The notes under the pieces were generated by a model that ran no database searches, was not told where the DNA came from, and saw only the letters and a list, made by a program, of their open reading frames with translations. Both the position numbers and the translations under genes were made by a program. DNA of 64,000 nucleotides from Clostridiaceae bacterium (GTDB lineage: Bacteria > Bacillota > Clostridia > Lachnospirales > Lachnospiraceae), in assembly GCA_902363735.1 (NCBI GenBank), contig CABJBA010000005.1:62001-126000 (forward strand). The letters run 5' to 3'. Shown here in pieces: positions 32,019 to 54,006 of the stretch (positions are counted from its first letter, which is position 1; each line of letters starts with the position of its first letter).

Positions 32019-32060
32019 GTTGTTATAACAACAGACAAAACTGACAGGAAATGATATCCT
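32019..32060 (+). promoter_or_regulatory. Crp/Fnr-type operator and -10 box of hcp
   Basis: A perfect 14-bp palindrome GTTGTTATAACAAC (32019-32032) is followed, 36 nt from its first base, by a -10-like TATCCT (32055-32060). If transcription starts about seven bases later, the palindrome is centred near -41.5, a class II activator position. The same arrangement occurs at 53965. Confidence 0.75.
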
Positions 32061-32144
32061 CTAAAAGAAGTAAAAACAATATGAGCACAGGCACCGGGCA
32101 CCCCCGGTGTTATGCATAAAATTTCACAATGGAGGTAACAGAAT

Positions 32145-33773
32145 ATGAGCATGTTTTGCTATCAGTGTCAGGAAACAGCAAAAAACACAGGTTGTACCAT
32201 TAAGGGAGTCTGCGGTAAAAATGAGGAAGTGGCAAAGCTTCAGGACTTGCTGATCTATGCAACAAAGGGAATTTCAGAAATTATTGTAAAGACTAAGGCA
32301 AACGTTGCAGAACTGGCTGAAATCAATCATGAAGTATTAACAAGCATTTTTATTACAATTACAAACGCAAACTTCGATGCAGATGCCATTGACAAGCAGA
32401 TTGTAAAGGTACTTGGCTTAAGAGATGATCTGGCAAAGAAGACAAGCTACACCGGAAACAACGATGCAGCAGTATTTACGGTAGGCGACAGAGCTTCCAT
32501 GCTTGAAAAAGCTGCAACTGTAGGTGTTCTTTCCACAGAGAACGAAGATGTTCGCTCCTTAAGAGAACTGATCATCTACGGAATCAAGGGAATGGCTGCT
32601 TACGCAGAGCACGCTTACAACATTGGCAAGGAAGACACTTCTATTTATGATTTTATGTATGAAGGACTTGCAGCAACGTTAGACGACAGCCTTTCTGCTG
32701 ACGATCTGGTTGCGCTGACCTTAAAGACCGGAGAATACGGCGTAAAGACCATGGCTCTTCTTGATGAGGCCAACACCTCCCGTTACGGAAATCCGGAGAT
32801 TACATCTGTAAATATCGGTGTCAGAAAGAACCCGGCTATTCTTATTTCCGGTCATGATTTAACTGATATGGAGCAGCTTTTAGAGCAGACACAGGGAACC
32901 GGAGTTGATGTTTATACTCACGGCGAGATGCTTCCGGCTCACTACTATCCTGCATTTAAGAAATATGATAACTTCGTAGGAAACTACGGCAACTCCTGGT
33001 GGATGCAGGTTGGCGAGTTTGAGTCCTTCCACGGCCCTATCCTCTTTACAACCAACTGTATTGTACCACCAAAGACTCCGGAAGTTGCAACCAGAATCTT
33101 TACAACAGGTGCGTCAGGTTTTCCTGGATGTCCGCACATTACTGCTGATGAAAATGGCAAGAAAGATTTCTCTGCTATTATTGAACTGGCAAAGACACTT
33201 TCTTCTCCTGATGAGATCGAAACAGGAAGCATTGTAGGCGGTTTCGCACACAGTCAGGTACTTGCACTGGCAGATAAAGTAGTTGATGCAGTAAAGACCG
33301 GTGCTATTAAGAAGTTCTTTGTTATGGCAGGCTGCGATGGAAGAATGAAATCCAGAGATTATTATACAGAGTTTGCAAAACAGCTTCCAAACGATACCGT
33401 TATTCTGACCGCAGGATGTGCAAAGTACAGATACAACAAACTGGGCCTTGGCGATATCGGTGGTATTCCAAGAGTTCTGGATGCAGGCCAGTGTAATGAC
33501 TCCTACTCCTTGGCTGTAATCGCACTGAAATTAAAGGAAGTATTTGAGCTTAATGATATCAATGAACTTCCAATTGTTTACAACATTGCATGGTATGAGC
33601 AGAAGGCAGTTATCGTGCTTCTGGCACTTCTTTCCTTAGGCGTGAAGAATATTCACTTAGGGCCGACATTACCGGGATTCTTATCTCCTAATGTTGCTAA
33701 TGTTCTTGTGGATACTTTTGGTATCGCAGGCATTGGAACCGTTGAGGATGACATTGCATTATTCACTGCATAA
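32145..33773 (+). CDS. hcp: Hybrid cluster protein (hydroxylamine/NO reductase-type)
   Basis: A 542-residue class I/II hybrid cluster protein. The N-terminal cluster cysteines are C5, C8, C17 and C23 in MSMFCYQCQETAKNTGC... The hybrid 4Fe-2O-2S cluster ligands are spread through CPGFPHI-like FPGCPHI, HSQVLA, MAGCDGRM and TAGCAKYRYN. Hcp reduces NO or hydroxylamine and defends against nitrosative stress. GGAGGTAACAG precedes the ATG. A ferredoxin follows (~230 bp after a terminator) and a Crp/Fnr-type palindrome sits upstream. The protein call is firm; its physiological substrate here is inferred. Confidence 0.95.
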   Translation: MSMFCYQCQETAKNTGCTIKGVCGKNEEVAKLQDLLIYATKGISEIIVKTKANVAELAEINHEVLTSIFITITNANFDADAIDKQIVKVLGLRDDLAKKTSYTGNNDAAVFTVGDRASMLEKAATVGVLSTENEDVRSLRELIIYGIKGMAAYAEHAYNIGKEDTSIYDFMYEGLAATLDDSLSADDLVALTLKTGEYGVKTMALLDEANTSRYGNPEITSVNIGVRKNPAILISGHDLTDMEQLLEQTQGTGVDVYTHGEMLPAHYYPAFKKYDNFVGNYGNSWWMQVGEFESFHGPILFTTNCIVPPKTPEVATRIFTTGASGFPGCPHITADENGKKDFSAIIELAKTLSSPDEIETGSIVGGFAHSQVLALADKVVDAVKTGAIKKFFVMAGCDGRMKSRDYYTEFAKQLPNDTVILTAGCAKYRYNKLGLGDIGGIPRVLDAGQCNDSYSLAVIALKLKEVFELNDINELPIVYNIAWYEQKAVIVLLALLSLGVKNIHLGPTLPGFLSPNVANVLVDTFGIAGIGTVEDDIALFTA

Positions 33774-33793
33774 TTAATTAAATCATCTATCAT

Positions 33794-33832
33794 AGGCCCT
33801 CCCGCTGCTTTATGCATGGGCGGGCCTTTGTG
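33794..33832 (+). terminator. Terminator after hcp
   Basis: A stem AGGCCCTCCC/GGGCGGGCCT with one mismatch and a 14-nt loop is followed by TTGTG. Confidence 0.65.
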
Positions 33833-53254: not shown

Positions 53255-53269
53255 GAGGCGGAAGGCCTC

Positions 53270-53932
53270 TTATTGCAGCAGGGTGAAACGGTTTTTCTTA
53301 TAGCTGAGAAGTCCCTCTGCCTGGAGCTTACTCAGCTCATTTGACAGGGCGCTGCGGTCTATGGAAAGATAGTCTGCAAGCTGCTGCCTGTTAAAGGGGA
53401 TATCAAAAGAAGAGGTCCCGCTTTTTAAGGATTCGGTGGAAAGGTAAGACAGCAGCTTTTCCCTGATGGTCTTCTGGGACATGTGCTGCATCTTTTTTGT
53501 GAGAGCCATGTTTTTTCCGGCGATGGCTGTCAGGAAATTCTGTACCAGCCTTGTGTGGTAACCGCATGCCGAGGTACACACGGTCATGATCTTATTATAA
53601 TCGAGAAACACCACGTTGCATTCTGAATCGGCAACCACGCTCATTTCTATAGGAATGGAAGCCAGGCAGGCATATGTTTCGGCAAAGATGAAGCCAGGCG
53701 TCACCTCAGAGATAATAGTCCGTCTGCCCCAGAAATCCTCCTGGATAATCAGGGCGGTTCCGGAGAGAACCATTCCTATGGAGCGGATGTAATCACCGCT
53801 TCTTATGATAAATTCATCTTTTTTAAAATTCTTTGTCCGTGCTGAAAGACATTTCAGCATAGTTTGTATTTCTTCCTGGCTGACTCCGGAAAATAAGCTT
53901 GATTTTTTTAATACCGGATAAAATTCATCCAT
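53270..53932 (-). CDS. Crp/Fnr-family regulator (HcpR-like candidate)
   Basis: A 220-residue Crp/Fnr protein. The cyclic-nucleotide-binding-type fold spans residues 15-125 (FIIRSGDYIRSIGMVLSGTALII), and the C-terminal helix-turn-helix is FNRQQLADYLSIDRSALSNELSKLQAEGLL. No four-cysteine FNR cluster is present, though several cysteines are scattered. It is divergent from the cupin-hemerythrin operon. A palindrome between them recurs at hcp. HcpR proteins of this family regulate hybrid cluster protein in clostridia, so that name is plausible. Confidence 0.9.
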   Translation of the reverse strand: MDEFYPVLKKSSLFSGVSQEEIQTMLKCLSARTKNFKKDEFIIRSGDYIRSIGMVLSGTALIIQEDFWGRRTIISEVTPGFIFAETYACLASIPIEMSVVADSECNVVFLDYNKIMTVCTSACGYHTRLVQNFLTAIAGKNMALTKKMQHMSQKTIREKLLSYLSTESLKSGTSSFDIPFNRQQLADYLSIDRSALSNELSKLQAEGLLSYKKNRFTLLQ

Positions 53933-53964
53933 TTATATGTCTCCTTTTAAATTATTTTTGAAAT

Positions 53965-54006
53965 GTTGTTATTACAACGGAAAAGATGTAATTATTATAT
54001 TATAAT
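53965..54006 (+). promoter_or_regulatory. Crp/Fnr-type operator and -10 box of the cupin operon
   Basis: GTTGTTATTACAAC (53965-53978) is followed by TATAAT (54001-54006), again 36 nt from the first base of the palindrome. It differs from the hcp site by one base. The centre is at about -41.5 from the expected start. The site is also 33-46 bp upstream of the divergent Crp/Fnr start codon, so self-regulation is possible. Confidence 0.8.

What the first reader, a model, noticed from the sequence alone, without database searches (positions are those of the whole stretch)
32019..54006. Shared palindrome with identical 36-nt spacing links hcp and the cupin-hemerythrin operon
GTTGTTATAACAAC (32019) before hcp and GTTGTTATTACAAC (53965) before the cupin operon differ at one base. 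Each lies exactly 36 nt (first base to first base) from a -10 box (TATCCT, TATAAT), which puts the centre near -41.5. The second site also borders a Crp/Fnr-type gene. This predicts one NO-responsive regulon, with hcp, cupin, DUF1858, the unknown 203-aa protein and hemerythrin as members. Crp/Fnr (HcpR) control of hcp is established knowledge; the extension to this operon is inferred.
Basis: partly seen in the sequence, partly recalled or inferred. Interest (0 to 1): 0.75.

Follow-up and report, generated by a model that had tools for sequence, protein, structure and literature searches.

The report
Shared switch for nitric-oxide defence genes
Two distant gene groups in an anaerobic bacterium carry the same DNA docking site at the same distance from their start signals, and relatives keep this arrangement, so one regulator probably turns on a shared nitric-oxide defence programme that includes a conserved protein of unknown function.

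Summary
The regulon is well supported: cupin-side site in 14 of 14 Lacrimispora-type loci, hcp-side site in 12 of 13 hcp orthologs; site plus -10 occurs 56 times in 14 genomes, reversed control 1, although the bare 14-mer is not in excess. In other Clostridia hcp often lies directly upstream of the 203-aa gene. Recognition residue 181 tracks the half-site (Pro-GTAA, Thr-GTAG, Ser-GTTG); the window's regulator has Ser181 and groups with HcpR. Additions: it lacks the haem ligand of P. gingivalis HcpR but has C28/C119/C123/H126, kept all-or-none, suggesting an iron-sulphur sensor; the 203-aa protein is modelled with an H-NOX/TRAPP-like fold, without the haem motif. Binding, start sites and NO response are untested. 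NO induction of a cupin-hcp operon beside HcpR2 is known in Desulfovibrio. Verdict: new variant of the HcpR regulon.

The parts
32019..32032 (.). palindrome GTTGTTATAACAAC, predicted HcpR-type operator of hcp, centre about -41.5
   Evidence: conserved in 12 of 13 relatives
32055..32060 (+). -10 box TATCCT of hcp promoter, preceded by TGA (extended -10-like)
32145..33773 (+). hcp, hybrid cluster protein (542 aa)
   Evidence: TIGR01703 740 bits, NF003658 842 bits
34002..34190 (+). 62-aa ferredoxin (FrdX-like); no palindrome in front of it in this window, though 3 of 14 relatives have one
53270..53932 (-). Crp/Fnr-family regulator, groups with HcpR, recognition helix DRSALSNEL (R180 S181 N185 in CRP numbering), C28/C119/C123/H126 signature
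53965..53978 (.). palindrome GTTGTTATTACAAC, predicted operator of the cupin operon, between the divergent regulator gene and cupin
54001..54006 (+). -10 box TATAAT of the cupin operon promoter (other -10-like hexamers lie 3, 5 and 8 nt upstream)
54046..54381 (+). small single-domain cupin (111 aa)
   Evidence: PF07883
54414..54596 (+). DUF1858, hybrid-cluster-protein-associated redox disulfide domain (60 aa)
   Evidence: PF08984, TIGR03980 102.9 bits, cut-off 44.95
54613..55224 (+). 203-aa conserved protein, no Pfam family; AlphaFold2 model with H-NOX/TRAPP-like fold
55221..55769 (+). hemerythrin-domain protein (182 aa); follows the 203-aa gene in 69 of 80 loci
   Evidence: PF01814
55844..56251 (+). 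second hemerythrin-domain protein (135 aa), operon end or separate unit
   Evidence: PF01814

Best explanation
The two palindromes are operators of one HcpR-type Crp/Fnr regulon. The regulator at 53270-53932 (or, in genomes that have it, a Ser181 paralog beside hcp) binds GTTGTN4ACAAC as a dimer centred at -41.5 and activates transcription in the class II manner at hcp, at the cupin-DUF1858-203aa-hemerythrin operon, and in relatives also at a DUF1858/solute-binding fusion gene and ferredoxin genes. Shown by comparison: site, spacing, targets, recognition code, grouping with HcpR. Inferred: binding, activation rather than repression, the NO signal, and sensing through a C28/C119/C123/H126 metal (probably Fe-S) centre instead of the haem of P. 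gingivalis HcpR. Likely roles of the products (inferred): Hcp reduces NO; hemerythrin plus DUF1858 act as a split relative of RIC/YtfE-type repair proteins; the 203-aa protein binds a ligand or cofactor in an H-NOX/TRAPP-like fold.
For: Strict motif occurs only twice in the window, 0.03 expected. Cupin-side site with TATAAT at 36 nt in 14 of 14 Lacrimispora-type loci (13 confirmed by script, L005 by its hit in G005). hcp-side site with its -10 at 36 nt in 12 of 13 hcp orthologs. Pattern with -10 found 56 times in 14 genomes, 1 for the reversed control. hcp directly upstream of the 203-aa gene in 16 of 48 loci outside the 14 Lacrimispora-type and 18 near-identical L029-type loci, and in 2 of those 14 and 0 of those 18; hemerythrin next to it in 69 of 80. 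Residue 181 against bases 3-4: Ser-TG 29 of 29 rows, Pro-AA 19 of 20, Thr-AG 3 of 4. Regulator groups with P. gingivalis HcpR and Pro181 regulators beside hcp, apart from six other Crp ORFs, support 0.92. Five of 14 genomes have one family member at E<=1e-12 and both sites. C28/C119/C123/H126: of 77 distinct sequences 55 have four, 22 none or one. Cupin (log2 4.4) and hcp (3.17) beside hcpR2 are NO-induced in D. desulfuricans (passages).
Against: No binding, start-site or NO data. The window's own genome is not held, so a paralog in this strain cannot be excluded. The bare 14-mer is not in excess genome-wide: 42 places in six genomes against 36 for the reversed control; only site plus -10 at 35-37 nt is, and with any spacer of 8-37 nt the counts are 144 against 24. 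The cupin-side -10 is ambiguous (one search shows hexamers at 28, 31, 33 and 36 nt in relatives). 36 loci with an HcpR-type helix have no perfect site with the -10 at 36 nt before the genes examined; 15 are near-identical Ala181/Val185 loci, L005 does have its site, and L024, L059, L079, L275, L315 and L317 have one-mismatch repeats. Lacrimispora Arg185 paralogs also go with GTTGT, so residue 185 does not cleanly set base 5. D. desulfuricans authors model HcpR2 as a repressor. Code rows repeat relatives (24 distinct helix/half-site pairs; L163 and L085 are one place, two rows each).
Confidence: 0.82

Rival explanations
1. Same operator, but a second HcpR paralog elsewhere in this genome controls hcp, and the cupin-side regulator controls only its own operon; cross-talk only.
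For: A Ser181/Arg185 paralog lies beside or near hcp in 5 of 14 relatives and has its own GTTGTN4ACAAC promoter in 4 of them; G004, G005, G010 and G013 have a further member elsewhere.
Against: Five of 14 genomes lack any second member at E<=1e-12 and still have both sites; both paralogs have the Ser181 helix.
Confidence: 0.2
2. The protein is a repressor that blocks the promoter (site overlaps the -35 slot) and is released when NO destroys its Fe-S cluster, as modelled for Desulfovibrio HcpR2.
For: Published model for D. desulfuricans HcpR2 with an Fe-S cluster; the window's hcp promoter keeps a partial -35 (CAGACA) and a TG before the -10.
Against: Spacing kept at 36 nt for four operator types is the class II activation geometry; the C. 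difficile hcpR mutant has lower hcp and frdX (passages).
Confidence: 0.15
3. The signal is not NO but O2, nitrite/hydroxylamine or general Fe-S stress, with Hcp and hemerythrin as redox repair proteins.
For: Hemerythrins and Fe-S proteins fit oxidative stress too; the sensor ligands proposed here could react with O2 as well (inference).
Against: The C. difficile hcpR mutant is sensitive to NO and other reactive nitrogen species, not to reactive oxygen species (abstract passage); NO induction in D. desulfuricans.
Confidence: 0.2
4. Chance similarity of two AT-rich palindromes.
For: Loose scan with 3 mismatches is no more than chance; bare 14-mer not in excess in six relatives.
Against: Strict motif 2 against 0.03 and conservation at the same genes and spacing in relatives.
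Confidence: 0.01

Closest known systems
HcpR/HcpR2 regulon (Rodionov et al. 2005, PMC1274295; passages seen)
   Same: Crp/Fnr-family regulator, hcp and ferredoxin-like targets (hemerythrin-like genes also named among hypothetical members), palindromic 5-4-5 operator, Pro181 regulators with GTAACN4GTTAC found again here; HcpR2 with Ser181 and a deviating motif already noted for C. difficile and C. thermocellum.
   Different: Operator GTTGTN4ACAAC; targets include the cupin-DUF1858-203aa-hemerythrin operon; C28/C119/C123/H126 signature, not mentioned in the passages seen, which say the canonical FNR cysteine motif is lacking.
HcpR2-cupin-hcp locus of Desulfovibrio desulfuricans 27774 (PMC5701242; passages seen)
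   Same: Regulator gene beside a cupin-hcp pair that NO induces; an Fe-S cluster is named for HcpR2.
   Different: No 203-aa protein or hemerythrin in that operon in the passages seen; drawn as repressor; its cluster ligands and operator were not seen, its sequence not fetched.
hcpR-frdX-hcp of Clostridioides difficile (PMC12915319; passages seen)
   Same: NO defence, regulator beside hcp and a ferredoxin, predicted site before frdX-hcp.
   Different: Among the genes changed in the mutant only frdX-hcp has a predicted site; 'cupin' and 'hemerythrin' do not occur in its main text.
H-NOX domain (and TRAPP Bet3)
   Same: Best matches of the predicted fold of the 203-aa protein.
   Different: No HNOB Pfam hit in 24 members, YxSxR haem motif in 5 of 64 (motif recalled).

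Membership tests
HcpR (HcpR2 clade) | Crp/Fnr-family protein (cNMP-binding plus Crp HTH) | tested here: met
   PF00027 46 bits, PF13545 39.1 bits, both over cut-off
HcpR (HcpR2 clade) | groups with known HcpR in a tree | tested here: met
   68 of 74 tips, with P. gingivalis HcpR and Pro181 regulators beside hcp, support 0.922 against six other Crp ORFs; a weak test, since no wider set of Crp/Fnr families was included
HcpR (HcpR2 clade) | operator before hcp | tested here: met
   sequence and conservation; binding not tested
HcpR (HcpR2 clade) | classical operator GTAACN4GTTAC | tested here: not met
   GTTGTN4ACAAC instead, as expected for Ser181
haem-type HcpR (P. gingivalis) | haem ligand Met68 | tested here: not met
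   Gln in the window and all 15 RSN/RSS members at that column; but Met is found in only 1 of the other sequences of the set too
FNR | canonical N-terminal FNR cysteine motif (recalled) | tested here: not met
   cysteines at 28, 89, 105, 119, 123 only; a different four-residue signature is present
NO-responsive HcpR regulon | induction by NO | not testable with these tools
   needs expression data
H-NOX | fold | tested here: inconclusive
H-NOX | YxSxR haem motif / HNOB profile | tested here: not met
   motif in 5 of 64 members, position not checked; no HNOB hit at E<=10 in 24
RIC/YtfE (TIGR03652) | curated equivalog score in one protein | tested here: not met
   135-aa hemerythrin 21.2 bits against 204.7; 60-aa protein 13.3; 182-aa hemerythrin no hit

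The most novel reading that the evidence does not exclude
A large clade of clostridial HcpR-type Crp/Fnr regulators senses NO not with haem but with a so far undescribed 3Cys-1His iron-sulphur site (C28, C119, C123, H126), has shifted its DNA code stepwise (Pro181 GTAAC, Thr181 GTAGC, Ser181 GTTGC/GTTGT), and drives a defence operon whose unknown 203-aa protein is a haem-motif-less member of the H-NOX/TRAPP fold that handles NO or an NO-damaged cofactor.
Probability: 0.35. Interest if true: 0.75.

Novelty: new variant of a known kind. Interest (0 to 1): 0.6.

Why it matters
It turns a two-site observation into a testable regulon shared by many Clostridia, gives a simple residue-base code to predict NO regulons from the regulator's helix, offers a candidate Fe-S NO sensor in place of haem, and puts a widespread protein of unknown function (1329 relatives at E<=0.001) into NO defence with a structural hint at how it might bind its ligand.

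Tried and rejected
Loose motif scan (3 mismatches) in the window: no excess. Bare 14-mer in six genomes: 42 against 36 reversed, no excess. Pfam for the 203-aa family: nothing consistent in 24 members. PDB sequence search for the 182-aa hemerythrin: no hit. Rfam over 31900-56450: none at gathering score. Consensus promoter and terminator scans: about as many as in shuffles. Explaining base 5 of the half-site by residue 185 alone fails, because Lacrimispora Arg185 paralogs go with GTTGT. Haem sensing through Met68 is not supported for this protein. A site before the window's ferredoxin was looked for and not found. The IF3-like loci with GTTGTGGAAACAAC (L167, L177, L189) have no -10 at 36 nt and were left out of the regulon. 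Left out of the code count: six loci where a perfect GTAAC site lies near a Crp ORF of another helix type (L061, L064, L065, L074, L078, L319), and all one-mismatch sites. Of the 56 hits, my sorting gives 13 hcp, 14 cupin operon, 14 of the DUF1858/solute-binding type (downstream gene seen in 11 genomes; G005, G007, G014 by promoter likeness only), 5 regulator-paralog promoters (one orphaned in G010), 3 ferredoxin, 2 of the 235-aa ferredoxin protein; the other 5 are two backward readings of hcp sites and three unexplained.

Literature: ten searches; only open-licence papers are held and only passages of seven papers were seen (PMC1274295, PMC12915319, PMC13370916, PMC12750200, PMC7482061, PMC5640608, PMC5701242), so absence is weak.
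Full report
Observation. GTTGTNNNNACAAC occurs twice in the 64-kb window against 0.03 expected, none of 100 shuffles reaching two; with TATNNT at +36 again both and only both. A loose scan is uninformative. On the cupin side the run TATTATATTATAAT holds further -10-like hexamers at 28, 31 and 33 nt, so the 36 there is one choice of four; on the hcp side there is no such choice.

Genes. hcp (542 aa, TIGR01703 and NF003658 far over cut-off), a Crp/Fnr regulator divergent from a small cupin, a 60-aa DUF1858 protein that is NCBIfam's 'hybrid cluster protein-associated redox disulfide domain' (TIGR03980), a 203-aa protein without Pfam family, and two hemerythrin-domain proteins. 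The DUF1858 protein also matches ScdA_N weakly (E 2.3e-5, under cut-off), the domain that I recall as the N-terminus of RIC/YtfE proteins; with the hemerythrin gene behind it this looks like a split relative of RIC (inference), but no protein here meets the RIC equivalog score.

Conservation in close relatives. A scan of 84,980 species genomes with the 203-aa family gave 323 confirmed relatives, of which the best 80 were kept. In the 14 Lacrimispora-type loci the divergent region keeps GTTGTN4ACAAC with TATAAT 36 nt on in 14 of 14, though flanks differ. hcp orthologs 85-90% identical were found in 13 of those 14 genomes; 12 of 13 have GTTGTAATAACAAC with TATCCT or TATTCT 36 nt on. In the thirteenth the site with its -10 lies 848 nt before hcp (401044 against 401892). 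Site plus -10 at 35-37 nt occurs 56 times in the 14 genomes, against 1 for the pattern read backwards; with any spacer of 8-37 nt 144 against 24. The bare 14-mer is not in excess: 42 places in six genomes against 36 backwards, so it is the combination with the -10 that stands out. The targets recur: hcp, cupin operon, a 417-aa protein with DUF1858 plus a solute-binding domain, the ferredoxin, a 235-aa 4Fe-4S protein, and the hcp-side regulator paralog. These genomes are related, so the 56 are not independent; the point is that the 14-mer and the spacing stay while the flanks change.

Wider conservation. Outside the 14 Lacrimispora-type loci and 18 near-identical L029-type loci, 16 of 48 loci have hcp directly upstream of the 203-aa gene (2 of the 14, 0 of the 18); the hemerythrin gene follows in 69 of 80 loci and DUF1858 precedes in 48 of 80. 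So hcp and the window's operon, 20 kb apart here, are one gene cluster in a good part of the relatives. In two Lacrimispora-type loci (L001, L002) a full-length second hcp sits between cupin and DUF1858; in ten others only a shortened frame is left; in the window only 32 nt separate the two genes. Over the 80 loci I listed 83 perfect GT..AC repeats upstream of cluster genes: TATNNT stands at 36 nt in 35 of them, more than at any other offset; the next are 37 nt (19), which I ascribe to the 18 L029-type loci with GTCAT repeats, and 28, 31 and 33 nt (16 each), which I ascribe mainly to the Lacrimispora TATTATATTATAAT run.

Operator code. I took 80 further regions around hcp genes (hits of 59% identity or more; seven second or partial copies at that identity were left out) from unnamed class relatives, 128 of 291 searched genomes having a hit at E<=1e-120. 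In all I examined 176 loci, some of them overlapping: 86 with a Crp-like ORF, 116 with a 5-4-5 repeat GT..AC (up to one mismatch) whose -10 is at 36 nt. With perfect sites and HcpR-like helices, residue 181 (CRP numbering) goes with bases 3-4: Ser with TG in 29 of 29 rows, Pro with AA in 19 of 20, Thr with AG in 3 of 4. Rows repeat close relatives (L163 and L085 are the same place); there are 24 distinct helix/half-site pairs. 36 loci with such a regulator have no perfect site before the genes examined: 15 near-identical loci with an Ala181/Val185 helix; L005, whose site is there but whose cupin was not recognised; six with a one-mismatch repeat; the rest nothing. The window's regulator (Ser181, Asn185) falls in the GTTGT class. 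A tree of 74 proteins puts it with P. gingivalis HcpR and the Pro181 regulators, apart from six other Crp ORFs, on a lineage Pro181, Thr181, Ser181 with supports 0.945, 0.974 and 0.994. Rodionov et al. 2005 had already tied residues 180 and 181 to the motif, given GTAACN4GTTAC for HcpR2 with Pro181 and noted Ser181 with a deviating motif in C. difficile and C. thermocellum (passages; the figure with that motif is not held). The Thr181 and Ser181 half-sites reported here extend that.

Which regulator. All 14 genomes have the cupin-side regulator; 5 have a 34-36% identical Ser181/Arg185 paralog beside or near hcp, and G004, G005, G010 and G013 have another member elsewhere. G002, G003, G006, G007 and G012 have one member only at E<=1e-12 and carry both the hcp and the cupin site, which favours one regulator for both. 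For the window's strain this cannot be checked.

Activator or repressor. Centres at -41.5 with the same spacing over four operator types are the class II geometry (established knowledge of CRP/FNR promoters). The C. difficile hcpR mutant has less hcp and frdX mRNA (passages). The D. desulfuricans authors draw HcpR2 as a repressor, though the same paper also says 'activates'. I prefer activation.

Sensor. P. gingivalis HcpR needs Met68 for haem (passages). That column is Gln in the window's protein and in all its class; Met is rare there in general (1 of 29 Pro181 sequences, none in the other clostridial classes), so its loss is not tied to the signature below. Cys28, Cys119, Cys123 and His126 are kept in at least 119 of the 120 best of 4841 relatives each and in 120 of the 120 best of 1188 relatives of the Thr181 family. 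Among 77 distinct Crp-like ORFs 55 have all four, 22 none or one (six of these being the other Crp ORFs), and none has two or three; about half of the Pro181 sequences (15 of 29) have it. All-or-none retention of three Cys and one His suggests one metal site, most simply an Fe-S cluster; that the four meet in space is not shown. An Fe-S cluster is stated for D. desulfuricans HcpR2, but its ligands were not in the passages seen and its sequence was not fetched.

Known and new. The HcpR regulon, NO induction of a cupin-hcp pair beside HcpR2, and HcpR in C. difficile are in print. I found no report of the cupin-DUF1858-203aa-hemerythrin operon as part of it, of GTTGTN4ACAAC, or of the four-residue signature, after searches; only open-licence papers are held and only passages were seen. 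I rate it a new variant of a known kind.

Noticed in passing
L003, L004, L007-L014, between cupin and DUF1858 (for example L013:5121-5786): An open frame of 175-229 aa that, as I read it, is Hcp with the core deleted: the N-terminal helical part and, in L007-L014, something like the last residues are kept; full-length Hcp stands there in L001 and L002, nothing in L006 or the window. Either decay or a new small protein.
   Followed up: partly
L091 (G007) and L092 (G010), upstream of hcp: Apparent remnants of the hcp-side regulator paralog: its 3' end in G007, its orphaned promoter in front of the hcp promoter in G010.
   Followed up: partly
L159:190-1443 (-) and the same gene in 10 further genomes: A 417-aa protein of DUF1858 plus a solute-binding domain stands behind the same operator in 11 of 14 Lacrimispora-type genomes (3 not checked); no copy lies in the window.
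   Followed up: partly
L007, L010: Contigs titled 'Paenibacillaceae bacterium' MAGs carry loci nearly the same as Lacrimispora; possibly mislabelled bins.
   Followed up: no
L167, L177, L189: GTTGTNNNNACAAC in front of what looks like the IF3 gene in three genomes, without a -10 at 36 nt; probably another leader element.
   Followed up: no
L029, L030, L032-L044, L046-L048, upstream of the 182-aa hemerythrin gene: A perfect repeat GTCATTATTATGAC with TATTTT 37 nt on, in the group whose regulator has an Ala181/Val185 helix; it lies 113 nt before the hemerythrin gene, so possibly inside the 203-aa gene.
   Followed up: no
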